The notes under the pieces were generated by a model, which ran no database searches, was not told the DNA's origin, and worked only from the letters and a program-made list of their open reading frames with translations. Shown here piece after piece: positions 81-32,302 of a stretch of DNA of 49,311 nt; within the stretch, counting starts at the first letter, position 1; every line of letters begins with the position of its first letter. A program made the position numbers and the translations under genes. The DNA is from Candidatus Brocadiaceae bacterium (GTDB taxonomy: Bacteria > Planctomycetota > Brocadiia > Brocadiales > Brocadiaceae): the NCBI GenBank assembly GCA_015661205.1, contig JACVXV010000013.1, forward strand, positions 1 through 49,311. The letters are read 5' to 3'.

Positions 81-545
81 TCACGGTGAACCAGCACAGG
101 AGCATATTCGCCCACTGAAATCATTATGGCTTTTTGAGATATAAATTATATTGGGCATTTCTGAAATCATATCCTTCAAAAAAGGAGGAAGTTGGCTAAT
201 GTCATCTTTAATTCTTTCATCTGTTGTAACAAGTATAATTTCACAACTCTCATTTTTCCGCAGAATATCCTTCATGTACGGCCAACCTGTCCGTGGAGGA
301 TTAAAATTTCCAAGATCGTAATCAAGGATAGCTATATCAACAAAGTCATTCAGTTTTTTAGTACATTTTTCAGCAAAAGTATTAAAATCATTTTGATAAT
401 TAATTTTATGCAATGACAACTTTACCTCGTTTGTAAATTCTGCCTCAATATCATCTATATATTTATATTTGCTAGAATCTTGATCCTTATTAACCGGCAT
501 ATCCTCAAGTATAAGTATGGTTATATCATCTTTATTCTTAATCAT
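81..545 (-). CDS. receiver-domain-like protein (stand-alone response regulator)
   Basis: A 154-residue protein with the layout of a CheY-type receiver domain. It has an acidic pair near the N-terminus (LILEDMP, E14-D15), a predicted phospho-acceptor strand (IAILDYDLG, D75), a Thr pair after the next strand (ILVTTDE, T107/T108) and a Lys after the last strand (IIYISKSH, K138). No output domain follows, so it probably acts by protein contact. The frame stays open to an ATG at 593, but the ATG at 545 is preferred because AGAGGGG lies six bases upstream of it; the longer form would overlap the preceding gene by 29 bases. It is the last gene of a five-gene minus-strand cluster that includes a histidine-kinase-like ATPase, the obvious partner. 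The sequence is divergent, so receiver function is inferred from motif order only. Confidence 0.6.
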   Translation of the reverse strand: MIKNKDDITILILEDMPVNKDQDSSKYKYIDDIEAEFTNEVKLSLHKINYQNDFNTFAEKCTKKLNDFVDIAILDYDLGNFNPPRTGWPYMKDILRKNESCEIILVTTDERIKDDISQLPPFLKDMISEMPNIIYISKSHNDFSGRICSCAGSP

Positions 546-564
546 ATTTTTCCCCTCTGATATT

Positions 565-1002
565 TTAGTGATTAATGATTGCTTTAATTTCATTGTGATA
601 CCTTTCTGTAAATTGTATTATTATTTTATTGGGTTCTTCAATTATTATTTTCGATAACCAATCTTTACAGCTTTTACTAGAAATAATTACTTCTGATGGG
701 TCAGCTATAATTGGAAAGTCTTTTTGATAAGTTAGGTTTATAATTTTGAGTTTCCGTTCTTTATATTCTATTTCTTTACTTACTTTATCTATTATAGCTA
801 CCCACAACTTTACACTATCATAAAGATTGGTAAATAATAAGTAATGAATATCATTGGGATTATTGAGAATTATTTCTGAATTCATACGTAACTCAGTTTT
901 AATAACATTTCCACCTAAACAATAATGCAAATACCTACCTAGAGAATCGGCAATTTCTTTCCCATGCGAATCACTCTGGTAGTAAATATTTATACTATCC
1001 AC
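565..1002 (-). CDS. hypothetical protein in signalling cluster
   Basis: A 145-residue soluble protein that I do not recognise. The N-terminal stretch (INIYYQSDSHGKEIADSLGRY) loosely recalls the first strand and helix of TIR-like or receiver-like alpha/beta folds, but the key motifs are not convincing. No signal peptide or membrane segment is seen. It lies between the 275-residue unknown and the receiver-like gene in the same orientation, 19 bases before the favoured start of the latter. A role in the same signalling pathway is inferred from position only. Confidence 0.5.
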   Translation of the reverse strand: MDSINIYYQSDSHGKEIADSLGRYLHYCLGGNVIKTELRMNSEIILNNPNDIHYLLFTNLYDSVKLWVAIIDKVSKEIEYKERKLKIINLTYQKDFPIIADPSEVIISSKSCKDWLSKIIIEEPNKIIIQFTERYHNEIKAIINH

Positions 1003-1171
1003 TACAATTCTCCTTTATTCGCATTTCATATTTCAGTAAACCATTACGATTCTTTTAATTTCTTCCAAAGACAAGTCCATCTTACCCTTGAAAAATCCAT
1101 AATAATCGGATAATGTCTTCCGTTTCTCTCTTCTGGAAATTATCTTCGCCTTTAAAACCTTAAGATGCTGT

Positions 1172-1999
1172 TCAAGTCTTTTGATATGTAGTTTTATCAA
1201 CGCACCTTTCATCCAACGAATCCCTTAAGATTACGAGTTGGCTATACCAATCATGGAATGAAGTAATATCTTCCCAAAATTTTTCGTTCAGTTCTTCTCC
1301 CATTAAATTCGCTTTTCTTTTATCAAGTGAATTCAGAAAATTATGGATATCAAAACTATTTTTATCAAACAAATCATTCAGCTTTTTTCCATAATTCTCG
1401 TCAGTTATCCCTTCGATACCCTTTCTTGAGTTTTCAAATTTATTCATAAAGAAACTATCCTCTACATCACTGAGCATTTCTTTAAGATATTTACTTTTAT
1501 CAGTTAACCTTTCATCTGTTAATGCTTGTAGGTCTATATCGAGAGGAAGGAATAACGTCAGAATTAACCTCAATTTTTCCACTGCTTTAATTTTAGGAAG
1601 ATTTTTAATACACTTTTCAATATCCCATTCATTATCAGTAAAATATTTTAAAATATCACTACCACTTCCAACTATATCAAACCATGGTTGCTCTTTAGCT
1701 TCCTTAATTGCTGACCCACTCTCTGATTTACAAACTTTAAATATAACTTTTCCTCCATACTTCTCATCAATTTTCTGACGATTTTCTTTCGTTAATTCAT
1801 AACTTTCTGTGCCTGTAATATGCCACAATATTGCAAGTTCACAATCTTGTTTATTAAAATAATCCGATTTTAGAAATTCGTTTATTGTTCCAAAACTTCT
1901 TATTTTATTTATATCTTGTGTAAATCCTCTTTTCGCATCAAAACAAGAATCCAAAAAATATTCTTTAATATCTATTAAAGCATAATATATTTTTCTCAT
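1172..1999 (-). CDS. hypothetical protein, possible divergent receiver-like N-terminus
   Basis: A 275-residue soluble protein with no family I can name. The first 110 residues alternate hydrophobic strands and helices (YYALIDIKEYF, CELAILWHITG, KVIFKVCKSES) in an order that could be a degenerate receiver fold; the remainder is helical and charged. Its start codon lies three bases after the stop of the histidine-kinase-like gene, which implies translational coupling. The 169 bases after it (1003-1171) hold no further gene that I can see. Function is unknown; a place in the same signal chain is inferred from the tight spacing. Confidence 0.5.
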   Translation of the reverse strand: MRKIYYALIDIKEYFLDSCFDAKRGFTQDINKIRSFGTINEFLKSDYFNKQDCELAILWHITGTESYELTKENRQKIDEKYGGKVIFKVCKSESGSAIKEAKEQPWFDIVGSGSDILKYFTDNEWDIEKCIKNLPKIKAVEKLRLILTLFLPLDIDLQALTDERLTDKSKYLKEMLSDVEDSFFMNKFENSRKGIEGITDENYGKKLNDLFDKNSFDIHNFLNSLDKRKANLMGEELNEKFWEDITSFHDWYSQLVILRDSLDERCVDKTTYQKT

Positions 2000-2002
2000 A
2001 AT

Positions 2003-3898
2003 TTATTTCCATTCATCTGGTAAAGTTATTTTATATGATAATTTATAACTCGGCGTCTCATATTTTCCTTCGAATGGCAGCTTGTCTGAGGTTATTATCC
2101 AGTAGTAAATACCATTCTGCAATTCAATGGTTAGCTTACATTTAAATCTATTACATATCCATTGGATTATGTAATGTCCGAATCCTATATTGCTTTTTTT
2201 ATAATCTACATTATTTCCTTTTAAGTAACTTGAAAGGTCGGATGGCAATTCTGAAAGCGTTTTTCCATCTCCACGGGCACCGGTTTTATATTCTTGAGTG
2301 TAAGTAAATGTCTTGTCTATATCTATGTGCACTTGTTTAACACAAAATTTGCCACCATGTTGAAAGGTGTTTCCAATTAAGTTCAAAATAATTGTATTAA
2401 GCGCTGGCTTGTAAATAATGACATTTGGTTTTATTGTTATTGAAGGTTCTGCATCAGAAAAAAGTTTAAAAGTTTCTGCACAAATAGGTGTTCCACGAGT
2501 TAGAAGAGAAAACCGTTTAGGTTTAAAATATTCCCACAGTTGTAGAATTTCTGTTTTTTCATAAATTGATTTTTCACAATCTACGTTAATATCTTCTCCA
2601 AAGAGATTCATCATTAAGTAATTTCTCTGTTCAATAACTTTGCAAATATCTTTTTTATCAAATTTGTCATTATTACGAATTTTATTAAATAATCTAGTTG
2701 TATCATGTCCATATGCCCGGTGAACCACTACATTTCTATCGTTAATTTTGATTAGTTCAAGAGCATCATCAATCGCTAAATTCAAACTGTCTTTATGTAC
2801 TTTCAAAAGGTTTTCATCAATATCAAAGTATAAAATAAATTCTAGATTATTTTTTTTTACATATAAACCACTTTTAGACTTCAGGTAATAATTGTTTTTA
2901 TGTATGTTGCAAATACCATCAAAAGATATAGGTTTATTTAATTTATTCGCGTCTTCAAATGTGTTGCAACCATTGCACTGGTTTTCTTGCCATTCCGGGA
3001 ACAATCTATCATCATGTTTATTATAAGATAAGTATTTATATATGTTCTTTTCTTTTAAGCATGCACCAGTAATATTGAAAATATGTGGTAGATTTTTAAA
3101 GATTGATATTGCAACGTTAAAGCTGTTGTTAGGAAGATCTTTAAGAACAGCAGATAAAAATTCATATTCCTTTGCATCCTTAATGAGGGTAATGCTAACT
3201 TCTGCTGTTAACTTTAAAAATCTTATGTAATCATAATATGTAAAATATTTTAGATTTTCATCACCTATAAAAGTAGTACCAATAATTTGACCATTTAAAA
3301 ACAAAGGAGCCATTATTGCACTAGTAACTTCGTGACCCTCCCAAAACACTTTTTCAAGCTTATTAATTATTTCCCCAAAAGTCCCCTGACTTTTAGTTAA
3401 AATTTGATCTATTTTAAGATATTTCCCTGCACCACTATATTTGATTTGATTTTCATTATAAAAAATACGTGGAATACCCGTATGGTAACATTGACCTATC
3501 ACTCCATAATTAATACTTATTGGCGTCTTAAATAATAAATCTAAAAACACTTCTATAGCCACCTCCTTTTTATCAATACTTTTTGTTTGTTTATCTAAAT
3601 AATCTTTAACCTTCTTAACTAAGTTCTTTTCGTCATACCACTCTATGATATCGTTTTCTGCATTGACAATTTCGTACACTTCTTTGATAACATCGTTTAG
3701 CATTTCCTTCTTTTTCTCAGAGGTATAAAGAAGTTTTTTATAATAAGTTCTCCCATAGTAATGAAAACATTGTGTGTTTGGATTAATAAGTGCAACAAAG
3801 GGTGATATTTTATCGGAGCGAAACTCCTCACGTAATTTTTCTGCAATTTTAGATATTGTGTTATCTATGTCTTTTTCGCCAGCGATATAATTTCGCAT
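2003..3898 (-). CDS. GAF-domain / histidine-kinase-like ATPase sensor
   Basis: A 631-residue cytoplasmic protein without membrane segments. The N-terminal 250 residues look like a GAF sensor region. A cysteine-bearing stretch follows at about 305-345 (CNGCNTF then GICNIHKN), which might bind metal or cofactor. The C-terminus has a GHKL ATP-binding domain, with an N-box-like ILNLIGNTFQHGG around 504-516 and a glycine-rich SNIGFGHYI near 569-577. A possible dimerisation/phospho-His helix (VVVHRAYGHDTTRL) lies about 110 residues before the N-box, but it is not a canonical H-box. It overlaps the upstream GAF-like gene by 34 bases and is followed three bases later by the next gene, so the set is one operon. 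The likely role is a soluble sensor kinase, or a GHKL ATPase of another type; the ATPase call is firmer than the kinase call. Confidence 0.65.
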   Translation of the reverse strand: MRNYIAGEKDIDNTISKIAEKLREEFRSDKISPFVALINPNTQCFHYYGRTYYKKLLYTSEKKKEMLNDVIKEVYEIVNAENDIIEWYDEKNLVKKVKDYLDKQTKSIDKKEVAIEVFLDLLFKTPISINYGVIGQCYHTGIPRIFYNENQIKYSGAGKYLKIDQILTKSQGTFGEIINKLEKVFWEGHEVTSAIMAPLFLNGQIIGTTFIGDENLKYFTYYDYIRFLKLTAEVSITLIKDAKEYEFLSAVLKDLPNNSFNVAISIFKNLPHIFNITGACLKEKNIYKYLSYNKHDDRLFPEWQENQCNGCNTFEDANKLNKPISFDGICNIHKNNYYLKSKSGLYVKKNNLEFILYFDIDENLLKVHKDSLNLAIDDALELIKINDRNVVVHRAYGHDTTRLFNKIRNNDKFDKKDICKVIEQRNYLMMNLFGEDINVDCEKSIYEKTEILQLWEYFKPKRFSLLTRGTPICAETFKLFSDAEPSITIKPNVIIYKPALNTIILNLIGNTFQHGGKFCVKQVHIDIDKTFTYTQEYKTGARGDGKTLSELPSDLSSYLKGNNVDYKKSNIGFGHYIIQWICNRFKCKLTIELQNGIYYWIITSDKLPFEGKYETPSYKLSYKITLPDEWK

Positions 3899-4491
3899 AG
3901 TTGAATACCAAATTTGTTTAGAACGCTAAAACCTTCACCATTGCATAATGAATGATTTGTAGTACAACGATAGTTATCGTTGTTTAATAGAAAGTTAACT
4001 CTTGCTGATTGCTGTAAAACACAAGCTTTAATTTGACGATATATGTAATCTAATAATCCTTTATTAAAACCACCCGATTTTAATCTTGAAAATAAATAAA
4101 AAGAGCCAGCTAATTTGGAACAACCATTAATCACAATAGGAATTATAAGACAACTTTTAGCATCAGCGATATAGGGGAATTGTTGTAAACCATGACTTTT
4201 CCAATTACTGCAATTAAAACGTTCTAGTTTGTCATTAAATTTTGTATAAAACGTTTGCAATATTTGTTCATTCTCTGAAGATAAATAGTACGAAGATATT
4301 ACAGTCGCTCCGCTATTTAAGAAAACAATTCCAAATGATAGATCAAATAAAGGTTGGAAATATTGTAAGAATATTTTGAAGTACTCATTGCTGGGGTGTA
4401 TAGAAAGTAAATCATAGTAAATATAAGAAAATATTTCATCGATATCTTGCTTGTTACGTTTATTATTAGGTGCATCAAACAAGAGAGGCAT
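3865..4491 (-). CDS. GAF-like sensory protein
   Basis: A 208-residue soluble protein, first gene of the five-gene minus-strand signalling cluster. The central region (strand-rich, with FGIVFLNSG and SCLIIPIVINGCSKLAGSFYLF) resembles a GAF domain, and the C-terminus carries Cys/His residues (YRCTTNHSLC). The start is well supported by AGGGGAA six bases before the ATG. Its last 34 bases overlap the histidine-kinase-like gene, so it is probably translated together with it and may supply a second sensory domain. The GAF assignment rests on pattern only. Confidence 0.5.
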   Translation of the reverse strand: MPLLFDAPNNKRNKQDIDEIFSYIYYDLLSIHPSNEYFKIFLQYFQPLFDLSFGIVFLNSGATVISSYYLSSENEQILQTFYTKFNDKLERFNCSNWKSHGLQQFPYIADAKSCLIIPIVINGCSKLAGSFYLFSRLKSGGFNKGLLDYIYRQIKACVLQQSARVNFLLNNDNYRCTTNHSLCNGEGFSVLNKFGIQLCEIISLAKKT

Positions 4492-11338: not shown

Positions 11339-12010
11339 TTATCCATTACCCGAACGGATAGAAAAAAGAAGCTGGAGCTTCCGGTGCAGGCACATTCCGA
11401 AGCTGGAGCTTGGGAACAAGAGAATCCAAGGCTTTTGCGGTCTTGCCCTGGCAATGGCTACCCGCTTCATCTGACCAAGCGGAATCTTGTCGCATGACGA
11501 ATCTAACCTGTCCCCCAGCCCCAGTTTGCCCAGCCACTCGGAGGATATTTTTTTGTTCTGTCTGTTTTCCTTTTTCGCACAGTTGCTTATCAATGCAAGA
11601 ACGGGGTTTTCACCGCGCAGTCCCGGGGCAAACACCATAACGTTTTCCAGGGTGGACATGGTGGGGAAAAGCCTTATATCCTGCCAGACCCTTCCAACGC
11701 CTTCCCATACAAGCCTTTCCGGGGTGAAATGATCAAAGGGGTTTAGCGCTTTCCACCAATGGCGCGGCCAGGAAAAGAGTTCTTTGTTGCCGTTGAAGTT
11801 GAGATGGATTTCACCCTTGTCAGGCTCAAGGTTGCCGGTCAGGATGTTTACCAGGGTGGTTTTGCCGGAGCCGTTTTCGCCTCGCAGAAGGACAACCTCG
11901 CCCTGTTTGAGGTCTACGGAGATATCATCAAGTATGGCCTGCCCGCCAAAGGACTTTTTGAGTCCTCTTACGGAAAGGACGGTGTTTTCTTTTTCTGTTA
12001 TTGTTGGCAT
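11339..12010 (-). pseudogene. decayed second livG, 3' end replaced by a repeat
   Basis: The open frame of 223 codons begins as a normal LivG-type ATPase: Walker A RGENGSGKTTLV, a Q-loop region GVGRVWQDIRLF, and signature IPLGQMKRVAIARA. Homology stops just before Walker B. From about 11420 the frame runs into a copy of the AAGCTGGAGCTT repeat and encodes low-complexity text (FPSSSFGMCLHRKLQLL). The protein would lack Walker B, the switch His and the C-terminal domain, so it cannot hydrolyse ATP. It lies directly upstream of the intact livH and downstream of decayed livM and livH copies, which makes it part of a second, dying LIV operon. Confidence 0.85.
11369..11422. repeat. AAGCTGGAGCTT-type interspersed repeat
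   Basis: A copy of the unit GAAGCTGGAGCTTCCGGT plus a second GCTGGAGCTTGGGAAC half. Other copies are at 12331-12385 (same orientation), 39153-39220 (inverted), and a diverged half at about 21122-21151. This copy forms the false 3' end of the second livG. Confidence 0.85.
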
Positions 12011-12060
12011 GGTTATATTGGTGTTTTAAATAAGGTCTTCGGTGACTCTTTTAGGCACGA

Positions 12061-13000
12061 ATTACACGGACTTACACGAATTAATGCAAATTTATACGTA
12101 GGGCAAGGCTTTAGCCTTGCTCCTGTCTGAACACTCACCAGGGGCGGCAACCCTAAAAGGGTCGCCCTACGACAGGCCCAAAGGGCAGAAAGGATATAGC
12201 CAGGGGTGAAGCCCCTGGAAAATAAAATACTATAACCAGCCCCGAAGGGGTGACAGAAAAGGGCGCACAATATGGCTGTGACATTTATTTTTCCTGGAAT
12301 TTACCATGGTTTTGTTCCCGAAAATTAAACGAAGCTGGAGCTTCCGGTACAGGCTCGTTCCCAAGCCGGAGCTTGGGAACGAGAGTGTGCTCTGTCGCCC
12401 CTTCGGGGCTTGTATTCTATTATTATCTTTACAGGGGGCTTCACCCCCCGCTATATCCTGTCGGCCTTTCAGGCCTAATTTTGAATTTCCTGTACATTAA
12501 GTTAGGCATTAGGCGGCTTTTTAGTGTTCATACGCGGGGACACGGGCACAGTGTCCCTACACCAACTCGTTCCAACGCTCTGCGTGGAAATGAATCGACA
12601 GGACGCTCCGCGTCCTGTTACTCAGGCGGGTTCAGGTTACCGATGTGAACCCACTGTGAGTTACCCCACGGGTGCAACTGTATGGGGACGCAGAGCATCC
12701 CAAGGCAGCATCCCCACGCAGAGCGTGGGAACGAGTCGGAATTATGTCGCCTACGGCGACGGCATTTGTAGCGCCGACCTTTATGGTCGGCAATGGCGCG
12801 CGAACGCGCGCCAGGCGGGGGATGAACCCCCGCGCTACAAGATTGCTTTGAATTTCGTATACATTAAATGATACTTCGACGATTTTTGATGGTACACAAA
12901 AATGTTTGAGGCTTTTGTGCCGTCCCTACGGGGTTCGAAATATCATAACAACGGCTTCCCACCGCTTACGCAGTGGGCTACGATTGTGTTGCCCCTGATG
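12061..13000. repeat. composite island of palindromic repeats (about 0.9 kb)
   Basis: The gap between the decayed livG and livM contains no gene; its open frames are repeat translations. Recognisable units are: GTAGGGCAAGGCTTTAGCC (near 12098-12120); a unit with AGGGGTGAAGCCCCTGG inverted at 12140-12256 and direct at 12391-12475; AAGCTGGAGCTTCCGGT at 12331-12385; GGGACACGGGCACAGTGTCCC near 12537-12557; TGTAGCGCCGACC/GGTCGGCAATGG near 12766-12795; and GCGGGGGATGAACCCCCGC near 12817-12835. Each unit is itself a short hairpin. The same units recur near 39, 42 and 48 kb. Confidence 0.85.
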
Positions 13001-13070
13001 GGGCATTGTACGTGCTTTCTGCCGGTTCAATCTTGTGGATAGAACCGCAACGTTTGATGTCTGAATTTTT

Positions 13071-13632
13071 TTATTTAAACCGGTATTTCCCTGCCAAGCC
13101 CTGCGGTCTCAAGTGTACCATGGTAACAAGAAGTAAGCCATATATCAAAAGTCTTATGTTTGCCGCGATGGCGTCAGGGATATACAAAAACCTCAGAATT
13201 TCCGGTATTGCTATGAGGGTGAAGGCGCCTACGATGGGGCCTATGAAATTTCCCGTGCCGCCAATGATGATCATGCTGATCATTAATATGGATTCGTCCA
13301 GGGTGAAAGAGGTGGGGTCTATATAGCTCACGTACGTGGCATATAGGCTGCCAGCAATGGACACCATTGCACAGGCTATAAAGAATGCCTGCACTTTAAA
13401 TAATCGGGTGTTTTTTCCAAGCCCCCTGGCCGCAAGCTCATCGTCTCTCATCGCGTTCAGCGCCCTTCCCCAGGGTGAACGTAATAATATAAATACGATA
13501 GTCCCACACACCAGGGTAAGGGACGTGGAAAGGGAGAACATTTTAAACAAGGTGTTGATTTGATAACCAAAAATACAGGGTAATGATGATGTAGATATCC
13601 AGATAGATGAGTAGGTGGAGGATATAGTTCAT
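13071..13632 (-). pseudogene. decayed second livM with internal deletion
   Basis: The first 17 codons from the ATG at 13632 (MNYILHLLIYLDIYIII) match the start of intact LivM. Homology then jumps, in another frame, to IFGYQINTLFKMFSL, which aligns with LFGLKIDSLQAFFTL at about residue 130 of the intact protein. From there the C-terminal half is well preserved (SYIDPTSFTLDESI, IPEILRFLYIPDAIA). About 110 codons, covering membrane helices 2 to 5, are missing and the frame is broken. The start codon still overlaps the stop of the second livH as ATGA, the same junction as in the intact cluster. Confidence 0.85.
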
Positions 13633-14223
13633 AGCGCTTCGACCCTTGCCTTGCTTCCTAAAATGCCTTGTGGACGAAAGAGGAGAAAAAGGACGAGGAG
13701 AAGAAAGGTCAGCGCGTCTTCCCACCGCGCCGACGTGTGCCAGACTACCTGAGAACGGGCTATCCCCAGTAAAATGCCGCATATTACCGGGCCGGCAAAT
13801 GACCCCTTGCCGCCGATAATGGTTGCCACGATTGCGATTAATACGGCGCTTAAGCCCCCCTGGGGATCAAAACCAACGTCCAGGGCGGTAAGGGTTGCGG
13901 CAACGGTTGTGAATATCCCGCTCAGGCCAAAGGCCAATAGTCTGAGCCTGGCAACGTCATGTCCTAAAAGTGAAAGCTGGATGGGGTTGTCTGAAAGGGC
14001 TATGAGCATTAAGCCGGAAGATGGTTATTACAAAGGTAAAGAAGACAGCGAATGGGGTTCCCAGTCCACATTTCATGAAAGAAAGGAGGAGGAACGGAGA
14101 AATGGCATAAACGGCGCCCTGGGCTACGTAGATTATGCCCGTTGAGTTATAGACAATTGAAAAGCCAATTGCCAGTAAAGATATAAGTAAGCCCTGAATG
14201 GTTCCGTTTAATAGTATCTGCAT
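13629..14223 (-). pseudogene. decayed second livH with internal deletion
   Basis: The 5' part from the ATG at 14223 encodes a good LivH start (LLNGTIQGLLISLLAIGFS) up to VFFTFVITIF near residue 70. The frame then shifts, and homology resumes near 14015 with LMLIALSDNPIQLSLLGHD, the counterpart of residues around 165 of intact LivH. It continues to a normal C-terminus (ALDVGFDPQGGLSAV, RWEDALTFLLL). About 95 codons are gone. With the adjacent livM and livG remnants it shows that the second LIV operon decayed through separate lesions in each gene. Confidence 0.85.
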
Positions 14224-19702: not shown

Positions 19703-21031
19703 ATGCCAAAACTGGAAGAAGTATTTGGGGTAAGGAAAGAACCTGTATTAAGTTATCTTTCCAGGAACCATGTTGACAGCATATTCCAGGATGCTTTGCA
19801 AACTGATAGGCAAATCATTGTATACGGTTCGTCGAAGCAAGGAAAGACTTCCCTTGTAGAGAGGTATGTTCCTTACAAAGATAATATCTCGATCAGTTGC
19901 AGTCCAAAGACAGAAGTTACAGACATTTACAAATCTATACTGCGACAAGTAAACATTGAAATAGTTACCGAATCCGAAACGAAGTCAAGCGTTGGAGCCG
20001 AAGCCTCCCTTATTGCGAAAGTTAAGGCCAGAATTCCATTTATAGGTGGGGAAGTGGAAGCAGGTGGAAAATTAAAAGGTTCTAGTGAAGAATCTGATCA
20101 CATTAAAACCATCGAGTTCAATTTAGCGCTTCCCCAAGACATTTTTGAATTATTGAAAAAAGTTAAGAGTAATAAGTTTGTTATTCTAGAGAATTTTCAT
20201 TACTTAGATGATGCATTACAAAAACAGTTATCTTTTGATCTTAGAACTTTCCAGGAACTTGGAGTTAGATTTGTAATTCTTGGGGTATGGAGAGAGAAAA
20301 ATCGGTTGGCCCAATTTAATGGAGATTTACTCGATCGGGTTGTTGAAATACCTGTCGAACCTTGGCAGGGAGCAGAGTTTGAAAAAGTTTTAGAAATCGG
20401 AGAAGAAAAGCTAAACATTAAGTTTTCCCAACAGATTACAAAAGAAATAATCGAAAAAGCATTTGACAGTATTGGGGTAGTCCAAGAATTAGCAAAAGCC
20501 GTATGTCAAAACGAAGGCGTCTTAGAAACACAGAAGTACCTTCGTGAACTTTCAAATCTATCTGCACTTAATAAAGCTGTAAGTACAAAGACTGATGACT
20601 ATTCTGCTCGGCACATCAGAGCGCTCGAAGACATAGCAAAAGGACAAAAAGCTACTAAATTAAAGGAAGGACAGCCAGCACCGCTCTTTTTACCCCACTA
20701 TTTAATACGAACAATACTATCAACGGATTTTGATAACATAGTAAAAGGAATTAAACGACAACAGTTGGAAGATCAAATCAAAAAAATGCATCATCGACCT
20801 GATGATGTAAGGCCAAGTGACATGAGTAACTTATTATACAACCTTTCGAAAATGCAAAACGATAAGGGTATAACACCACCAATATTTGATTTTGATAAAG
20901 TCCATCAAGAATTAAAAATCATAGATTCGACTTTTTATTTCTTCTTACGAAACACGAATACAAAATCAATAATTACTAGACTTGCTTCACCATTAGAGGA
21001 AAGTGAAGATACTTATGCGAGCTGTGTGTAA
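19703..21031 (+). CDS. P-loop ATPase, ORC/STAND-like
   Basis: A 442-residue soluble protein. The N-terminal third is an AAA/STAND-like NTPase: Walker A YGSSKQGKTSLVERY (about 42-56), with a Walker B candidate KFVILENFHYLD near 155-166. It carries Glu but lacks the usual second acid, so it is slightly atypical. The remainder is helical without a recognised effector domain. AGGAGA precedes the ATG. It is a single gene flanked by 270-bp gaps on both sides that contain repeats. Such orphan ATPases are frequent in defence islands and transposon cargo, but no partner is present, so function is left open. It is more AT-rich than its neighbours, which hints at transfer. Confidence 0.7.
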   Translation: MPKLEEVFGVRKEPVLSYLSRNHVDSIFQDALQTDRQIIVYGSSKQGKTSLVERYVPYKDNISISCSPKTEVTDIYKSILRQVNIEIVTESETKSSVGAEASLIAKVKARIPFIGGEVEAGGKLKGSSEESDHIKTIEFNLALPQDIFELLKKVKSNKFVILENFHYLDDALQKQLSFDLRTFQELGVRFVILGVWREKNRLAQFNGDLLDRVVEIPVEPWQGAEFEKVLEIGEEKLNIKFSQQITKEIIEKAFDSIGVVQELAKAVCQNEGVLETQKYLRELSNLSALNKAVSTKTDDYSARHIRALEDIAKGQKATKLKEGQPAPLFLPHYLIRTILSTDFDNIVKGIKRQQLEDQIKKMHHRPDDVRPSDMSNLLYNLSKMQNDKGITPPIFDFDKVHQELKIIDSTFYFFLRNTNTKSIITRLASPLEESEDTYASCV

Positions 21032-24415: not shown

Positions 24416-24519
24416 GCGCTTTTTATAGCCAAATCCTGACCAACTGTTCTGCTTCAGACGGAAATAGAATTTCTCTTATTGAAATAAGCTATACTTAAAT
24501 TATTTCAGAGGAGTGAAAA

Positions 24520-24801
24520 ATGGAACAAGCAAATGAGAGAAAAAAGTATCTACCGGAGAAATGAGCGGAAATAATGAAGCAGGAAAGTATTCGCTCCTAT
24601 TGCCCGGTAAACTTGCAAGACGCCCGGCGAATTGTGGAGGAATTCATCGCGCATTACAACACGAAACGATTGCATAGCGCAACAGGTTATATCGCTCCGC
24701 AGGACAAATTGATCGGACGTGAAAAAGAAATCTTTTCCGAACGAGACCGAAAATTAAGTGACGCGCTGGAACGGCGGGCGGCTAAACGGAAAACCGCTTG
24801 A
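24520..24801 (+). pseudogene. IS3-type insertion sequence remnant with internal deletion
   Basis: The remnant starts like the first transposase gene of an IS3-type element (MEQANERKKYLPEK, with AGAGGAG upstream), reaches a stop, and resumes in the same frame as the C-terminus of the integrase-type transposase. The key text there is CPVNLQDARRIVEEFIAHYN followed by KRLHSATGYIAPQDKL. The DDE catalytic core between them is missing. The whole piece is 282 bp, against more than 1 kb for an intact element. Its end meets the truncated GGDEF gene on the other strand. Confidence 0.75.
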
Positions 24802-25530
24802 CAGGACGGAGGTGCAGGCTTAACTCAATGTTGAGTGATTCGTCGAGTTTGAGCCGGTTGAATATATGGGTAAGCTTGTCTGTGGTAGAACGTAATAATA
24901 ATTCATGGTTAGCCTGCTCAAGTTCCACACGCATGACATTTATGAAGTGAAGAAGACGAGCAATTACACTCGTGTGCGAACTTGAATATACGTCATCTGT
25001 AGATACCCTATGAACATCAACTGGATTATCAGATAAGCCAGATTCGCTTTTTCGCGGCTCCTCGCGCATGCTCACGGCGACAAAAGCAAGGCTTAGCATG
25101 GGAATCCTGTCTTTTTGATTGCAAAACTCGCCAATGGTGTAAAAACCTGCGGTGGGGGCAATCGCTTCAAATGGCTTTGTTTCAGCCTCAGCATCATCTC
25201 GCAGCACCCAGCGCCTGCAACCACAGGTGAACAACAGGATCGCCTCTGGCTCAAAGGCCAGCATTTTGCGCTGAGCAGCGACGGAACTTTCCCTGAGAAA
25301 CTTGGGATCGGCAAATCCAATGCGGAATTCCTCACCCTCCCGAATATCCGAGATGAATACCAGTGAGCCACTCGGCCCCACCGCCACAGGCTCACTGGCA
25401 ATGATCTGATCGCCACGGTAAGCCAACAGCGGGAAGCCGAGCGCATGGTTAAAGAAGTCTTTGTCATCTTGAATGTCGAAGTAGCGCTGATATATTTCTA
25501 GGACTGGCAGCTTTCGCCTATCCTCCCTCA
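24782..25530 (-). pseudogene. FIST-GGDEF sensory protein broken at both ends
   Basis: The open frame (to 25600) encodes a FIST_C sensory domain (LGFPLLAYRGDQ, EPEAILLFTCGCRRW, PTAGFYTIGEFCN). A coiled linker follows (MRVELEQANHELLLRSTTDKL), then the first 20 or so residues of a GGDEF domain (LTHIFNRLKLDESL). The GGDEF catalytic loop is absent because the frame runs into the IS3 remnant. The N-terminal FIST_N domain is also absent; the upstream codons derive from the group II intron-like sequence. The ancestor would have been a diguanylate cyclase sensing small ligands such as amino acids. The remnant cannot make cyclic di-GMP. Confidence 0.8.
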
Positions 25531-25532
25531 TC

Positions 25533-25608
25533 AAACCGTGCATGCAGTTTTGCGAGCTTTCTCCTTTCGGCGAAATGCCTGCTAACCCCGCTTCCCGCAC
25601 ACGGCTTT
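25533..25608 (-). other. group II intron domain V-like remnant
   Basis: Read on the minus strand, the sequence gives AAAGCCGTGTGCGGG (from 25608) and GCATGCACGGTTT (to about 25533). These complementary arms have the conserved AGC ... GGTT pattern of domain V, followed by a GAAA-capped domain VI-like hairpin near 25510-25530. Instead of a tetraloop, about 45 bases lie between the arms. Upstream sequence (25609-25690) also looks like intron text, but no reverse transcriptase gene is present. It abuts the truncated FIST gene. Family identification is by pattern recognition. Confidence 0.5.
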
Positions 25609-25928
25609 CCGAAGTTCTTCACGCCAAGGCATACGCACCTCTCCACCCAGGTTTGCTAGCACGACTGAGGGTGTCGTACCTGTTCACTCAACATTGATCA
25701 CATACAAAAACGGTCTCTAGCTTGGCCTTGGTATATAGCTTCCTCTGTTGCTTTTCCCCCCGGCAACTACTGCGTTTCCAACCTCAACTCAACCCACTTC
25801 GCTTCCCAATCCACCATTCTGCGGAGGCGGTTGCCAGGAGGATGAATTGGTGTGGACAAGAGTTGCAGCCTGCCTGCGCCACATCCGTCACGGACGGCAG
25901 ATAGCTGTCGAGACACTTACGGCTGCTT
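25609..25928. other. gene-free junction region with a copied gene tail
   Basis: No intact gene. It holds probable intron-derived sequence near 25609-25690 and a 72-bp copy of the 3' end of the VWA-protein gene at 25774-25845 (see that entry). Confidence 0.6.
25774..25845 (-). repeat. 72-bp copy of the 3' end of the VWA-protein gene
   Basis: Matches 29995-30066 in the same orientation. The last 35 bases (ccaccattctgcg through ggatga) are identical and the first half has a few changes. At 30005-30066 this sequence encodes the final transmembrane/stop segment (LLATASAEWW ... RSGLS) of the 765-residue protein. Here it has no gene body attached. Confidence 0.85.
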
Positions 25929-27110
25929 TCATATTGCCTCTTTCCGTAGTATCCTTGCCGTAAACAGGTTGCGGTCATGATCCGACTCCAGCTCAAGCGC
26001 AGGCACTACCGCCAGCGCACGGCGGATGCCCGTGCCGATGCCGCGATAGGGGAGTTCGTCGCCTTTGGTTGCAAAGGAGGCGATGAGCGGATTACGGATA
26101 ACCGACACGCCGTTGCGGATGTTTTCAACGGTTAGATTGTTCGGCAAAGCCCCCGGACTGATCAACTCCACGCGATTGTCAAATAACATGACCCGCCATG
26201 GCGCGGAAATAAAGTAGTCCCGATGCAGCAGCATATTGGCGACAAGTTCTTCCAGTGCCGCCTGCGGTACTTCCAGGCAGCCTTCCGTATTGAAACCTTT
26301 TCCTTCTTGCAATTGCCGCAGATTGCGGGTAAGAAAGGATATCGTCCCCTTGTACAGATCACGCAAGCACCCTTGCACGTCCTGGCTGTCCCGGTATTTG
26401 TCACCGGCAGGGTCGTTGCCGACGAAGGATACCGCCTTGACGACAAAGGCGGGGCGATGCCTTTGGGGATTGCGCCCGAACAGCATAACCCCGGCGAGAT
26501 TGAGCGTTGCACCACGAGCCAAACTCAGATTGTTCAGCAATTGTCCAAGCGAAACACCCTCCTTGTCCAGCGTATTGTCGAGAGGCTCGCCGTACTGCTT
26601 CTCAAAGAAGGCGCTGAAGTGTCCAAAATCTATATCTCCTGCTGTAGCTCCCTCAACGGGAACCTCGTCCGCGTAAACGAGATTTGCGCTCTGAAGCATC
26701 CTCTGGACTTCTTCGCGGGAAGTTACCCGGCGCTTGTCCGCTCCTGACTTTACCCAGAATACGCCATCATTATCGGCGTAGGGCTTTGAGACGCCTTCCG
26801 GCACGGTGACAACCATAACCAAAAGTCCGCCGATAGAGACGTTATCGGTTTCCGGGTTAATAGAGGGACGGACGCAATCAGTCGCCGTGTTGGAAATGAG
26901 CTGATTAATCCTGCGTACGTCACCGGACGTTAACCCGACAACCGATCCGGCATCGTCAACGCCAATCAGTATCCGTCCACCCTTACTATTCGCAAACGCG
27001 GCCATTTCACCGGCCAGCGACTTAGTATTGGTGACGTCCTGGCCTTGTTTAAATTGAGTTCTGCTGTCTTCACCGCGGCTGATCAATTCAATAAGTTCTA
27101 TTGCTTCCAC
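25929..27110 (-). CDS. AlbA_2 / HATPase_c_4 protein (Schlafen-like putative DNA-binding ATPase)
   Basis: A 393-residue protein. The N-terminal AlbA_2 (SLFN) domain is recognisable by EDSRTQFKQ, LAGEMAAFANSKGGRILIGV and the ending GVFWVKSGADKRRVTSREE. A HATPase_c_4 region follows with PQAALEELVANMLLHRDY and LISPGALPNNL, then PYRGIGTGIRRAL. The family is often annotated as a RecG-like or transcriptional regulator, and relatives occur in defence loci. The start is GTG with AAGGAG 11 bases upstream; it overlaps the preceding PHP/SMC gene by 13 bases, so the two are co-translated. The length appears a little short at the C-terminus, since a winged helix is often present in longer members. Confidence 0.82.
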   Translation of the reverse strand: MEAIELIELISRGEDSRTQFKQGQDVTNTKSLAGEMAAFANSKGGRILIGVDDAGSVVGLTSGDVRRINQLISNTATDCVRPSINPETDNVSIGGLLVMVVTVPEGVSKPYADNDGVFWVKSGADKRRVTSREEVQRMLQSANLVYADEVPVEGATAGDIDFGHFSAFFEKQYGEPLDNTLDKEGVSLGQLLNNLSLARGATLNLAGVMLFGRNPQRHRPAFVVKAVSFVGNDPAGDKYRDSQDVQGCLRDLYKGTISFLTRNLRQLQEGKGFNTEGCLEVPQAALEELVANMLLHRDYFISAPWRVMLFDNRVELISPGALPNNLTVENIRNGVSVIRNPLIASFATKGDELPYRGIGTGIRRALAVVPALELESDHDRNLFTARILRKEAI

Positions 27111-29706
27111 AGTTGGTAAATCTCCTTCCGGCGGACGAAGGCTTCATGCCCGCCTTCCATGATAGATACGATGGCCTTTTGAATTTCAGGTTTGTCAATA
27201 CTACCAACCTGGACGTTGGCGCTTCCACCGGTGAAAGCGCATGCGCCTACCTGTTCCGCATCTCCCAGTACAGGGAAATTGGCGTTGTGTGTCGCAAAGA
27301 CAAACTGGATACGTTTTTTGAGTGTCCTCACCAGCTTAATGACGTCCTCAAAGATGGTCTGGTTGTCCAAGTCGTCTTCCGGTTGGTCAATAACAATAAC
27401 ATCGTTGTCACGCTGACTCAAAATGAAGAGGATTAACGCTGAAGCCCTTTGCCCCAGTGAGTGATCGCGTAGCTCCTTCCCGTGATACTCGATTTGGAAG
27501 ACGTTTGGCACCTGCCAGGTAAGCAATTCCGCCCTAGCTTCGTTGAAGTGCCTTCGAAACACATCTCCTGAATCTCCGAGGCGGTTACAGATTGTATCCA
27601 GCGCTTCGTAGACAGAGATGAAATCGGGATGAGAATCCAACACACCCTTCAAGGTTGCCTCCCGGAGCTTGCTGCCGCGGAAATGATTTTGCAATTCTTT
27701 CAAAAATGCGGGCTTGTCTCCCTTATACTGCGGAACAATCCGAAGCGCATTTTGACTTTCATTCAGTTTTTTGATTTCCACTTCGATTTGCTTGAACTCC
27801 TGATGCCATAAATCGGCAAGCCTCTTCAATTCCTTCAGAAGTTCGTCTTGAAGGGCGCTCTTTCGTTTACGGACCTTCGCCATTTCTTCGAGCGCAAGAT
27901 TGGCTTTCTGTAATTCGGTGTTAAGCTTTACGAAATCGTCCGGACGAATACTGATGCCTCCTGCTTGTTTCAGTTGCTCGCTCAATTTCCGCTCAATGGA
28001 AGCAAAATCGTCCTTGAGCGCCTCGCGACGACGCTCCAGTTCCCCAAGCTTCTCGCGCAAGGAGCGGGCGTCGTTGCGCGTCTCGTCAAGGAACTTCCGC
28101 ACGGTTTCAGGCGACTTGAGTATACGGTCAAGAATGGCATTGACGTCCGTGATGACATCAACGTTTTCCTTGGACACAAGCTTGGATTGCGCGGCCAGCT
28201 CAGATTCCTGTTCCTTCAGAAATGTGTCGAAAGACCGGACAAAGGCGTCTACGGCATCGGCGACGCGACGCGTGTGCGTAACGTCCGCATTGAACTCCAC
28301 CTGACGCCGAAGTTGCTGTTCAACGCCGTATTTTCTAAAAAGCTCCAGACGGAACTCTGTGTCCCTCCTCTTGCTCTGGTATTCCTGATCCCGTGCGTCC
28401 AAGTCTTTCAGTTTGTCGATATGAGACATTAAATCCAACACCCTTTGCCGTTGAGTAGCAATCTCGCGGCGGACGGCGTCAAGTTTCGAGCCTAACAAGC
28501 GTTCCACAAGTTCGCGCTCGGAACCTTCGCCTCTCTTCACCAATTCCTTTTGCCCGAAGAACAGGGGGTTCTTCAAGGGAATATGCACGCCGGGACGCAA
28601 TTCTCCATCGAAATAAACGTCCGCTCGTTCGTTTAGGATACGGCGGATTTCGTAACGCTGCCCTTGTGCGTCTTCCACCTCGACCACGACCTTTCCGCCG
28701 CAAACCGCACAAGCTCCTGCTTGTACTTAAGGTCCAATTCTTCTATGGATTCAGGCAACTGCAAATCAAGCGCAAAGCGTAAGCACTCGAGAACAGCCGA
28801 CTTTCCACTTCCCCGAATGCCGATTAAGCAGTTCATCTCATCGGAAAAGTCAACCCTCTTCCCATCCAATATCCCCCCCTCAAATCTAATAGAACGAACC
28901 CAGGAGTGCGCCTGCCTCTGAATGGCCTTGTCGGATAAGCGTTCAGCCTCGGGTTTCAAGGCAAACTGGACTGCCTCAAAGGTGAAAGCGCCGATCTTGA
29001 TGAATGACGGTTCTCCACGTCCGACTTCATCCAACACATTGGGGTCAGAGCCTTCCACTTCCGAAGGATACCAAGCGTCGAGCCAATTCTTTACTTTCTC
29101 CCGCAGGTCTCGCGTCCGCACTTTTTGAAAAGCTGCCGTGCGTGAGCGGAACAGTTCGTTTTTGCCGAGGTCGGTAATTCTCCCTCCATCAAGCGCTTCC
29201 CAGAGACCACTACTCTCTTCTACGTGTGCAAAGATTAGCAAGTAATCTCTTTCAAACTTGTCTAGTTCGCGAATGGTTTCCAGCAGATCGTGGTTAGAGC
29301 GGGAACAATTGTTGTCATAACCGGTCTGTCCGGCAAAGGTCACGCCGAGAAAGGAGTTGATGTAATCTTTATTATCGCAATTATCGACCCAGTTCTCATG
29401 GAATATCACCAGTGTATGAATACCATTTCTCCCGTCCTTAATCGACAACTCAACCCCGGGCAGTAGATATATATCTTCCTTTATTGCAGCTTTCCGGAGC
29501 GATCTGAATTCGTCCCGGTCGAACTTATTGTGGTTGGTGATAACGCCAACCCGAACGTCCGCATGCTTCAGCGCGGTAATGTAACGCGGCACAAAATCCT
29601 GCTCAGTACATGCGTCTTTAAATTTTTTATCACTCCTGGTGTGTAGATGAAAGTCAGCCCGCACCCACCGGCTTCCTTGAGTAAAGAAACGAACTTCTTC
29701 AGACAT
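27098..29706 (-). pseudogene. PHP-SMC (TrlF-type) ATPase gene split by a frameshift
   Basis: Two overlapping frames encode one protein of about 870 residues. The first (29706 to about 28720) has a PHP phosphoesterase domain (RADFHLHTRSDKKF, VITNHNKFD, LLPGVELS) and Walker A of an SMC/AAA-like ATPase (GIRGSGKSAVLE). The second (from about 28735 to 27098) has a long coiled coil, the signature SLGQRASALILF, Walker B DVIVIDQPEDDLDNQ, and FVFATHNANFPV. The switch lies within 28688-28740 and equals loss of one base (modulo three). It could be a real mutation, or a sequencing error. The family resembles TrlF-type ATPases and is inferred to act on nucleic acid ends. It overlaps the AlbA_2 gene by 13 bases, forming a two-gene unit. 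Confidence 0.8.
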
Positions 29707-30004
29707 TTTCCTTGTCTCCGAATGATAAATGATTGGAAATTGCTTTTTTCTACCTGAAAGCTACTATAGCGAAAGCGAAGAAGATTTCAAGCGTTTTTTA
29801 ATTCTTTCGGCAAAATTAAAAAAGCAAAGATAATGAATAAGGAATAATCATTGTGTCAACTGGGGACGGTTGACTTACCGATTTCTTCTCCGCCGTTTCT
29901 TCGCTCTCTTTGGTCTGCGTAGTTATGAAAAGAAGCACTTCTCTCTTTATTCTCCGCGTCCTCTGCGGATTTCCCTTTCCCTCGTCACCGCCGCGTTTTC
30001 ACCC

Positions 30005-32302
30005 TCAACTCAACCCGCTTCGTTTCCTTATCCACCATTCTGCGGAGGCGGTTGCCAGGAGGATGATGAAGATGTAGCTGTTGTCCCATAAGGTGATGCG
30101 GCGGTTGCCAACGAGTTTTGTGACGGCGGGGTTTTCCAGCGATACTTTTTCTTCTATGTCCTTTACCGGAAGATCAAAGTATCTCCCCCCGGATACGCCG
30201 GACAATTTGGCAAGCAAGTCTCTCCTGATGGCGGGGTCTTTAAACTCCTTGTTTTCCGCGGCTATGCTGAAGACGGCGTAGTCCTGCCCGATTTCTTCGT
30301 TTTCTTTTTTCGCCGTTACCTTGACGATGTAGTACCCCTCTTTGTCATGCTTTATCGCAAGACGATACTGGCCGTTGGCGTCTGTGACGCCTTTTGCGGA
30401 GAGTATGCGTTCTCCTGAAAATTCGTTGGTAACGTCCATATCCAACGGTACCCCTTCCAGCGGCTGGTAATTCCTGCCCAGCGCCTCAACCCTCGCCTGC
30501 ACCTCTTCGTTGGGCAAAAAGGTCTCCTTGTTTATGCGTATGTGGACGGGGTTCAGGGAGGCGTCTTTAATGAGCCACTTAATGGAGTTTTGCCAGAATT
30601 TCAGATAATGCCTGTTACTGCCGCCCTGCCCTACGGTAACAAAATTCCAGCGCCACAGGGAATCGGTGGTAATGGCCATGCAGCGGCCTTGCCCGGCGTC
30701 CATGACGGAAATCAGGGGGGGATTCCCCGATATCGGGAAGGTTGTCAGGGGTACGGCGTCTGCCTTCAGGCGGGCAACTTTATTGCACCCATCGAGTGCG
30801 GGAAGCTCGTTCCAGAGCGCGGCATTTCTGTCCGTATCGCCTTCAAGGAAGGTTATCGGGTGTTTCATGCCGTCGTTGGTCAGTGTGGCCTTTAACCGGG
30901 AGAGGTCGATGGTGTCTTTCCCGCCGTTGAGTTCCACGGGGAGTATTTCCTCTAAGGCCGTGCCGTCGTATCCGCCCTGGGAAAAGGAGATGTCGCCGCC
31001 AATCATGACAAATCCGCCGCCCTGATCGGTAACGAATTTTTTGATGTTGTTCAAATAATGTGAAAAGCGGAAAAAGGCCGCGTCGTACGGACGGTAGTCA
31101 AAGTTTTGGAATATCACCAGGTCGAAGCTGCTGAGTGCCTGGGTGAACAACTCGTCGATAGGAAAGGGGATGAGGCTCAGCTCGTCGTTTCTCGCCTCTG
31201 AGTTGTCGGTGGGAGACCGGAGGATGAAAAAAGATATCAGATCGATGTTGGGGTCGTTTTTCAGTATGCGCCTGAGAAACCGTTCGTCCCAGGATGGACG
31301 TCCGCAGACATGCATGATCCTGATCTTATCACGCACCACCTTTACCAAAAAGCTGACCTGGTTGTTTTCAGCAATGGCCTCCTGGGGCTGGACGGGCAGG
31401 GAGACGGTGTAAAGGAACGTCCCGGTGGTATAGGGTGTGAACGACAAATCTATATGGACTTCCTTCTCGTTTCCAACGTCTATGACCTTTGAGGAGATGA
31501 TATCGTTGCCTTGCTTTAAGGTAATGGGGAGCCGCATGCCCTTGTACCCAAAGATTTTGATAACGACGTCCGCCCGCCACGGGCTCCGCACAAAGGTAAA
31601 TCCATCATAAACGACGTCGCTGATGGCAATGTCCTTTACCTCCATGTTGCCGCCCGGCGCGAAGGTGAAAAAGGGCGCGGCGAGTCCCGCTGCAAGGTTT
31701 GACACGATTTCGAGCTTATCGACGCCCTGGGGATACTCGCCTGTGTCAGCGCCATCGGAAAAGAGGAAGCAGCCTTTAACGGATTTGCCCTCATACCGTT
31801 TTTTCAAATACTGGAGCATCCGGACAACGTCGGTATTAACGCCGTCGTAAACAATCCCTTTCCTCACGTCGGCAACCGAAATCTCTTTTACGGCGTCGGA
31901 AAAGGTTACAAAATCGACGTCGAAGTCATCCTGCAGTTTTTTGATGAACGACGCGTTTTCTTTGAAAAAGGTATCGACAAGCTGAGACCGGGCAATGCCC
32001 GTATCGCCGCCCTTGAGGGTCATGCTCATGGAATTATCCAGGACGCATACGATCTTGTTTTTTAACCTAAGCACCTCCTTTTGCTCCATCTGCGGCTGAA
32101 GGAGCATGAGGACGATGATGGCAACAGCGGTAAACCGCAGAAACATGACCATCCACCGCTTGACTGGTGGATGGAGCGTTTTAATGCTTGTCCAGGAAAA
32201 GTAGAGAGCGGCCAGCGCCAAGATCAGCGCCAGCGCACGCAGCCAGGGGCTTTCCATGCCGGTGAAGGTGAGATTCCATTGATTGATGTTTTCAGTGTTC
32301 AT
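30005..32302 (-). CDS. VWA-domain membrane protein with amidotransferase-like region
   Basis: A 765-residue inner-membrane protein. It has two N-terminal helices (about 20-40 and 50-70) and a von Willebrand A domain whose MIDAS is DNSMSMT, with CFLFSDGADTGE. A central region resembles class I glutamine amidotransferase folds (VMIGGDISFSQGGYDGT) without an evident catalytic Cys. A C-terminal helix ends the protein. Similar proteins occur beside MoxR/DUF58/DUF4159 genes in planctomycetes and are thought to sit in membrane complexes tied to chaperone AAA ATPases. The DUF4159 gene lies upstream in the same direction, separated by a 155-bp gap with two hairpin repeats. The last 62 bases are duplicated at 25784-25845. 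Confidence 0.8.
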   Translation of the reverse strand: MNTENINQWNLTFTGMESPWLRALALILALAALYFSWTSIKTLHPPVKRWMVMFLRFTAVAIIVLMLLQPQMEQKEVLRLKNKIVCVLDNSMSMTLKGGDTGIARSQLVDTFFKENASFIKKLQDDFDVDFVTFSDAVKEISVADVRKGIVYDGVNTDVVRMLQYLKKRYEGKSVKGCFLFSDGADTGEYPQGVDKLEIVSNLAAGLAAPFFTFAPGGNMEVKDIAISDVVYDGFTFVRSPWRADVVIKIFGYKGMRLPITLKQGNDIISSKVIDVGNEKEVHIDLSFTPYTTGTFLYTVSLPVQPQEAIAENNQVSFLVKVVRDKIRIMHVCGRPSWDERFLRRILKNDPNIDLISFFILRSPTDNSEARNDELSLIPFPIDELFTQALSSFDLVIFQNFDYRPYDAAFFRFSHYLNNIKKFVTDQGGGFVMIGGDISFSQGGYDGTALEEILPVELNGGKDTIDLSRLKATLTNDGMKHPITFLEGDTDRNAALWNELPALDGCNKVARLKADAVPLTTFPISGNPPLISVMDAGQGRCMAITTDSLWRWNFVTVGQGGSNRHYLKFWQNSIKWLIKDASLNPVHIRINKETFLPNEEVQARVEALGRNYQPLEGVPLDMDVTNEFSGERILSAKGVTDANGQYRLAIKHDKEGYYIVKVTAKKENEEIGQDYAVFSIAAENKEFKDPAIRRDLLAKLSGVSGGRYFDLPVKDIEEKVSLENPAVTKLVGNRRITLWDNSYIFIILLATASAEWWIRKRSGLS

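What the first reader, a model, noticed from the sequence alone, without database searches (positions are those of the whole stretch)
25929..29706. PHP-SMC ATPase paired with an AlbA_2/HATPase protein: candidate defence module
A PHP phosphoesterase fused to an SMC-like ATPase (TrlF-type) overlaps by 13 bases a Schlafen-type AlbA_2 protein with a GHKL-like domain. Nuclease-like plus coiled-coil ATPase plus regulator, next to an IS remnant and a group II intron remnant, is typical of defence islands (established for related architectures; function inferred here). The frameshift inside the ATPase Walker A to coiled-coil junction means it is off, phase-variable or mis-sequenced.
Basis: partly seen in the sequence, partly recalled or inferred. 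Interest (0 to 1): 0.6.

Follow-up and report, generated by a model that had tools for sequence, protein, structure and literature searches.

The report
Damaged TrlF-TrlG gene pair, likely antiphage
A relative of the ammonium-oxidising bacterium Kuenenia carries a two-gene module, a DNA-clipping-type enzyme and a partner protein, that other bacteria often keep inside their anti-virus restriction systems; here the first gene has lost a few bases, so this copy is probably switched off.

Summary
29706-25929 (-) encodes a PHP-SMC-like ATPase split into two frames (28633-29706, 27098-28687) and, overlapping by 13 nt, an AlbA_2/GHKL protein (25929-27110). They are TrlF and TrlG, named in Photorhabdus as the "temperature restriction locus" (PMC7554251), where no defence role was proposed. 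In a scan of 84,980 species genomes, 78 of the 80 best TrlF loci have trlG directly downstream, usually overlapping. 20 of 80 are nested in a type III restriction-modification operon (mod and/or res adjacent); genes near the pair are Mod or Res in 34/186 cases against 0/230 further away. On plasmids and one viral contig the pair lies inside type I hsd operons, once beside Tn7-like transposition genes. I infer a defence module: TrlF a Ppl-like nuclease-ATPase, TrlG a Schlafen-fold partner whose catalytic Glu is Gln in 77 of 79 aligned relatives. Defence is not demonstrated. The window copy is stand-alone, bracketed by a 74-bp direct repeat, in a family where TrlF is sporadic. Its trlF lesion is a net loss of 10 nt with no repeat tract: a true deletion or an assembly fault, not phase variation. 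Type III nesting appears unreported in the papers I could search.

The parts
28633..29706 (-). trlF 5' part: PHP phosphoesterase/nuclease domain plus Walker A (GSGKS at residues 299-303, window 28798-28812) of the SMC-like ATPase
   Evidence: NF045780 positions 2-369, E 1.1e-62; AAA_23 E 3.9e-6; the checked PHP residues (H20, H22, D26, H59, E86, H97, H161, D221) are present and near-invariant in about 87 aligned homologues
28699..28708 (-). lesion in trlF: net loss of 10 nt relative to relatives, shifting the frame
   Evidence: 8 nt in the window against 18 nt in all 65 parsed relatives
27098..28687 (-). trlF 3' part: coiled coil, ABC signature (HSLGQR), Walker B (IDQPEDD), H-loop (ATHNAN)
   Evidence: NF045780 positions 368-944, E 1.5e-82; checked motif residues near-invariant in about 87 aligned homologues
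25929..27110 (-). trlG: Schlafen/AlbA_2 domain plus GHKL (HATPase_c_4) domain, intact, 393 aa
   Evidence: Pfam E 1.6e-22 and 6.5e-11; AF2 model pLDDT 92.4; Foldseek 3lmm E 1.8e-20, SLFN11/13/14 and SAMD9 tRNase; 37-55% identity to 63 aligned relatives
27098..27110 (-). 13-nt overlap of trlF stop and trlG start, one of the overlap classes seen in relatives
   Evidence: (most pairs overlap by 4-22 nt)
29993..30066 (+). right copy of 74-bp direct repeat = 3' end of the neighbouring gene 30005-32302 (GATase1-like)
   Evidence: 3' end comparable in relatives
25772..25845 (+). left copy of the 74-bp direct repeat (92% identical), just beyond trlG; the copies are 4221 bp apart and bracket the module
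24574..24801 (+). truncated transposase (rve_3) fragment of an IS
25475..25609 (-). group II intron domain V/VI-like remnant (weak)
   Evidence: RF00029, 30 bits (gathering 40), E 0.0015

Best explanation
The module is a horizontally acquired trlF-trlG operon, a two-gene defence module against foreign DNA. TrlF is the effector: a Ppl-like PHP nuclease fused to an SMC/Rad50-type ATPase that would bind and degrade invader DNA from free ends. TrlG is its co-translated controller: a Schlafen-fold nucleic-acid-binding domain with an altered active site, joined to a GHKL ATP-binding domain, that would keep TrlF silent or license it according to a nucleic-acid or nucleotide signal. Where the pair sits between mod and res, or inside hsd operons, it would back up restriction by attacking restriction-generated ends or by firing when restriction is blocked. 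In this genome the copy is stand-alone and probably dead: trlF is frameshifted by a net 10-nt loss while trlG remains open. Shown here: domain content, obligate coupled pairing, R-M nesting, mobile-element carriage, the lesion. Inferred: the defence function, which protein is the effector, the substrate and the trigger.
For: Pair obligate and coupled: 78/80 loci with trlG directly downstream on the same strand. R-M nesting: 20/80 with type III Mod and/or Res adjacent; 34/186 near genes against 0/230 far genes, Fisher p 2e-13, with the caveat that loci are not independent; nested loci fall in several clades of the TrlG tree. An independent Pfam comparison of 138 near and 138 far genes gives N6_N4_Mtase 18 and ResIII 11 near; neither is among the families listed for the far set. 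Type I nesting in several gene orders: hsdR-trlF-trlG-hsdS-AAA-hsdM beside tnsABCD-type genes on an IncC plasmid; the same order in Aeromonas caviae; hsdM-hsdS-trlF-trlG-hsdR in Vibrio cidicii; hsdM-hsdS-AAA-trlF-trlG-hsdR on a viral contig. Sporadic in the host family: strong TrlF-type matches (over 90 bits) in 6 of 33 genomes. Plasmid carriage: 112 plasmid records with a trlG-like gene, 50 of them predicted conjugative. Checked PHP residues and ATPase motifs are near-invariant and present in the window. TrlF resembles Ppl weakly by sequence (NF042955 E 7e-17 and 9.3e-22), and Ppl is reviewed as an NTP-gated 3'-5' exonuclease defence (PMC12904381). TrlF fold matches Smc, MukB, Rad50, JetABC and Lamassu LmuACB heads.
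Against: No phage or plasmid protection assay exists in the literature I could search. In Photorhabdus, 16 distinct suppressor mutations of heat-induced growth arrest fell in trlG and none in the longer trlF (PMC7554251). If loss of either gene relieved the arrest equally, this has probability about 6e-9, so TrlF loss apparently does not relieve it, which does not fit a simple 'TrlF kills, TrlG licenses' scheme. 60 of the 80 loci showed no adjacent type III gene, although many are short contigs. The window has no R-M genes beside the pair.
Confidence: 0.55

Rival explanations
1. TrlG, not TrlF, is the growth-arresting effector (a Schlafen-type RNase or another toxic nucleic-acid-binding activity) and TrlF is its sensor or brake. 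The pair is then an abortive-infection or toxin-antitoxin-like module.
For: All 16 Photorhabdus suppressors, including stops and IS insertions, hit trlG and none hit trlF. The Schlafen plus minimal histidine kinase plus wHTH architecture is described as an RNase effector widespread in BREX-type loci (PMC12839542). TrlG fold matches SLFN11/13/14 and the SAMD9 tRNase.
Against: The residue aligned with SLFN14 E211 (the position mutated in PDB entries 9jr9 and 9uie) is Gln in 77 of 79 aligned TrlG, one of the others being a gap. The window TrlG ends after the GHKL domain without the wHTH. The checked TrlF catalytic residues are near-invariant, odd for a mere brake.
Confidence: 0.25
2. TrlFG is a temperature or stress growth-control locus, as the Photorhabdus authors proposed, and its presence near R-M genes is incidental.
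For: The only experimental phenotype is transcription induced by temperature upshift and growth arrest at 36 C (PMC7554251).
Against: Strong local R-M enrichment, carriage on plasmids and viral contigs and sporadic distribution do not look like a housekeeping stress response. A misfiring defence effector would give the same phenotype.
Confidence: 0.12
3. The trlF break in the window is an assembly error and the operon is functional.
For: Only one lesion in about 2.6 kb of otherwise conserved coding sequence; the genome is a 292-contig draft; no second assembly of this species was available.
Against: The discrepancy is 10 nt, not one base, outside any repeat or homopolymer. The surroundings hold other truncated remnants (FIST_C fragment 24782-25600, IS fragment 24574-24801).
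Confidence: 0.25

Closest known systems
TRL locus (trlR-trlF-trlG) of Photorhabdus laumondii and its plasmid homologues (e.g. pYR3)
   Same: Same two proteins in the same order; TrlG domain positions nearly identical (AlbA_2 14-128 and HATPase_c_4 298-365 there, 14-129 and 306-371 here).
   Different: No trlR-like ORF in the window (the longest minus-strand ORF between trlF and the upstream gene is 40 aa); trlF is broken here; the published role is growth-temperature restriction, not defence.
Ppl (single-gene PHP-SMC anti-phage protein)
   Same: N-terminal PHP plus SMC-like ATPase; weak profile match over both ends.
   Different: Far below the Ppl model cut-off (60.7 and 76.8 bits against 1000); TrlF is tied to a second gene, trlG.
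Bacterial Schlafen proteins (AlbA_2 plus GHKL plus wHTH) in BREX-related loci, and vertebrate SLFN
   Same: AlbA_2/Schlafen fold plus GHKL domain; association with defence operons.
   Different: TrlG has Gln at the catalytic Glu position, lacks the wHTH in the window copy, and was found tied to TrlF.
PrrC / RloC effectors embedded in R-M loci (from memory, not tested)
   Same: An ATPase-linked effector encoded inside an R-M operon, thought to fire when restriction is compromised.
   Different: No anticodon-nuclease domain was seen; two genes; mostly type III rather than type I operons.
Wadjet JetABC, Lamassu LmuACB, Rad50-Mre11
   Same: SMC/Rad50-type ATPase head with coiled coil in the predicted TrlF structure.
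   Different: The nuclease-like domain is PHP and fused in cis.

Membership tests
TrlF (NCBIfam NF045780) | Full-length profile match above the 350-bit cut-off | tested here: inconclusive
   The two frames score 213 and 279 bits over complementary profile halves; each alone is below the cut-off because of the frameshift.
TrlF-TrlG (TRL) pair | trlG directly downstream of trlF, same strand, overlapping | tested here: met
   13-nt overlap; the same layout in 78/80 loci.
TrlF-TrlG (TRL) pair | Small regulator trlR upstream, as in Photorhabdus | tested here: not met
   No comparable ORF upstream of the window trlF; by the 2020 paper the full three-gene set is conserved only in a few taxa.
Ppl | Match above the Ppl equivalog cut-off (NF042955, 1000 bits) | tested here: not met
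   60.7 and 76.8 bits.
Ppl-like PHP-SMC protein | PHP catalytic residues and complete ABC-type ATPase motifs | tested here: met
   Checked residues near-invariant in about 87 homologues and present in the window, split over two frames.
Ppl-like PHP-SMC protein | 3'-5' exonuclease activity gated by NTPs | not testable with these tools
   Biochemical.
Schlafen RNase | Schlafen/AlbA_2 fold | tested here: met
   Pfam E 1.6e-22; Foldseek to SLFN11/13/14.
Schlafen RNase | Three acidic catalytic residues (SLFN14 E206, E211, D249 by the alignment here) | tested here: not met
   E14 and D53 present, but Q19 aligns with E211; Gln in 77 of 79 aligned TrlG.
R-M-nested accessory module | Located inside an R-M operon | tested here: not met
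   Window copy is stand-alone; met in 20/80 relatives.
Anti-phage defence system | Demonstrated protection against phage or plasmid | not testable with these tools
   No assay found in the searched literature.

The most novel reading that the evidence does not exclude
TrlFG is an unrecognised two-gene anti-phage system that repeatedly inserts into type III and type I R-M operons as a back-up layer. In it a Schlafen-fold protein with a converted (Glu to Gln) active site controls a Ppl-like nuclease, and the Photorhabdus growth-temperature limit is heat-triggered autoimmunity of that system.
Probability: 0.35. Interest if true: 0.72.

Novelty: new variant of a known kind. Interest (0 to 1): 0.5.

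Why it matters
It connects a locus known only as a growth-temperature limiter to the R-M machinery of many phyla, which makes two open questions directly testable: what TRL is for, and what a Schlafen-fold protein does after losing a catalytic Glu. It also adds a two-gene relative of Ppl that annotation pipelines label 'TrlF family AAA-like ATPase' plus 'RNA-binding domain-containing protein' without linking them. The window copy itself adds little, being probably inactive.

Tried and rejected
Phase variation: rejected, no repeat tract and a 10-nt net loss. Programmed frameshift: not favoured, since TrlF was read as a single ORF in nearly all the loci, though the 80 best matches are biased towards intact copies. 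Clean integration at an att-like site: not proven. The 74-bp repeat brackets the module, but in eight of nine relatives read the gene upstream is followed by cmk-rpsA, while in this genome cmk is on another contig without that gene upstream, so a rearrangement lies here. Defence island in the window: only one other candidate. Type I linkage in chromosomes: few cases, 2 of 80. TrlG in viral contigs by single sequence: nothing. Literature on TrlF as defence: none found. PDB sequence search with TrlF: only Smc.

Full report
Observation. ORF A (28633-29706, -) and ORF B (27098-28687, -) match complementary halves of one profile, NCBIfam TrlF NF045780: positions 2-369 at E 1.1e-62 and 368-944 at E 1.5e-82. 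They are one gene broken once. ORF C (25929-27110, -) carries SLFN_AlbA_2 and HATPase_c_4 and starts inside the last 13 nt of ORF B. The checked PHP residues and the Walker A, signature, Walker B and H-loop residues are present in the window and near-invariant in about 87 homologues.

The lesion. In all 65 relatives that could be parsed, 6 codons separate the conserved L[VI] and GGK motifs after Walker A; the window has 8 nt there, a net loss of 10 nt. There is no homopolymer or tandem repeat, so phase variation and a simple one-base error are both unlikely. A small deletion is the easiest reading; an assembly fault remains possible because no second assembly of the species was available. Intact copies exist elsewhere.

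Identity. The pair is trlF-trlG. In Photorhabdus laumondii these genes, with a small regulator trlR, form the temperature restriction locus: transcription rises on temperature upshift and growth arrests at 36 C; mutations in trlG restore growth (PMC7554251). TrlG there has AlbA_2 at 14-128 and HATPase_c_4 at 298-365, nearly the window's layout. No trlR-like ORF lies upstream here.

Pairing elsewhere. A scan of 84,980 species genomes with a TrlF alignment found 455 relatives and returned the best 80. In 78 of 80, trlG is directly downstream on the same strand, usually overlapping by 4-22 nt.

Context elsewhere. 20 of 80 loci have a type III Mod directly upstream and/or Res directly downstream (mod-trlF-trlG-res). 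Among genes of at least 110 aa, 34 of 186 within 1.5 kb are Mod or Res against 0 of 230 beyond 4 kb (Fisher p 2e-13). Loci are related, so the p value overstates the evidence, but nested loci occur in several clades of the TrlG tree. An independent Pfam comparison of 138 near and 138 far genes gives N6_N4_Mtase 18 and ResIII 11 near, neither among the families listed far; PADLOC agrees. On plasmids and one viral contig the pair is inside type I operons in three orders: hsdR-trlF-trlG-hsdS-AAA-hsdM next to Tn7-like genes (A. caviae the same hsd order), hsdM-hsdS-trlF-trlG-hsdR (V. cidicii) and hsdM-hsdS-AAA-trlF-trlG-hsdR (L162). Among the 80 chromosomal loci type I genes are rare (2). In the host family more distant TrlF-like genes also sit near Mod/Res-like genes (L034, L036), and in L034, L035 and L037 with an AlbA_2 gene and a DUF2130-type gene.

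Mobility. Strong TrlF-type matches (over 90 bits) occur in 6 of 33 family genomes. 112 plasmid records carry a trlG-like gene, 50 of them predicted conjugative. The module's G+C is 51.4% against 45.3% for the window. A 74-bp direct repeat (92%) brackets it; the right copy is the 3' end of the neighbouring gene 30005-32302. In eight of nine relatives read that gene is followed by cmk and rpsA (gene names by eye, cmk checked by search); in this genome cmk is on another contig without that gene upstream. The site is therefore rearranged and I do not claim a clean insertion.

Mechanism. TrlF: fused PHP and SMC/Rad50-type head, the fold supported by a model of the Scalindua relative (L155, pLDDT 86.7) matching Smc, MukB, Rad50, JetABC and LmuACB. 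Ppl, a single-gene PHP-SMC defence protein, is reviewed as a 3'-5' exonuclease released by nucleotide depletion and 3'-OH ends (PMC12904381). By analogy TrlF should be a nuclease effector; that step is inferred. TrlG: model pLDDT 92.4, matching the AlbA_2-GHKL protein 3lmm and SLFN11/13/14 and SAMD9 tRNase. A profile alignment puts TrlG E14 on SLFN14 E206 and Q19 on E211, the position mutated in PDB entries 9jr9 and 9uie. Q19 is Gln in 77 of 79 aligned TrlG, the others being one Glu and one gap. I read TrlG as a nucleic-acid and ATP-responsive controller rather than a standard Schlafen RNase.

Tension. In Photorhabdus 16 distinct suppressors hit trlG and none trlF (my count from the paper's Table 1). 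With target size alone this has probability about 6e-9 (gene lengths taken from plasmid homologues), so loss of TrlF does not seem to relieve arrest. This favours TrlG as the toxic party, or a TrlF that restrains it. I therefore keep the TrlG-effector rival at 0.25.

Verdict. A member of a named gene pair whose link with type III and type I R-M operons I did not find reported in the papers searched, apart from a remark on small type I hsdM-like genes beside the pYR3 copy. The defence role is probable but undemonstrated; the copy in the window is probably inactive.

Noticed in passing
L033 (G000:C132), 296-1573 (-) and 1548-4430 (-): The same genome holds a second, intact and distant TrlF-TrlG pair (NF045780 627 bits; TrlG 29% identical). 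The contig end next to it (bases 1-98) is 95% identical to window 24445-24542, beside the IS fragment.
   Followed up: partly
L034, L035, L037: Family relatives show a different three-gene layout: AlbA_2/GHKL protein, DUF2130 protein and a TrlF-like ATPase, with type III Mod/Res-like genes nearby in L034.
   Followed up: partly
window 19703-21031 (+): AAA protein with a full-length match to PADLOC candidate PDC-S59 (E 9.8e-77), 4.9 kb from trlG.
   Followed up: no
window 81-4491 (-): Run of genes on one strand (170, 145, 275, 631 and 208 aa); the four scanned have no Pfam match at E 0.001, and the two scanned against PADLOC have no match.
   Followed up: no
window 25772-25845 and 29993-30066: 74-bp direct repeat (92%) bracketing the module; a weaker 41-bp match lies on contig C271 of the same genome.
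   Followed up: partly
window 11339-14009 (-): Apparent truncated second copies of branched-chain amino-acid ABC transporter genes, suggesting decay in this region too; judged by eye from the ORF list.
   Followed up: no
L163 6001-8589 (+): Viral contig with trlF but no trlG found nearby, preceded by a gene that looks like a cytosine methyltransferase.
   Followed up: partly
L118 and L131: Two of 80 TrlF loci without trlG; neighbours include an AAA_21 ATPase (L118) and a C5 cytosine methylase (L131).
   Followed up: partly
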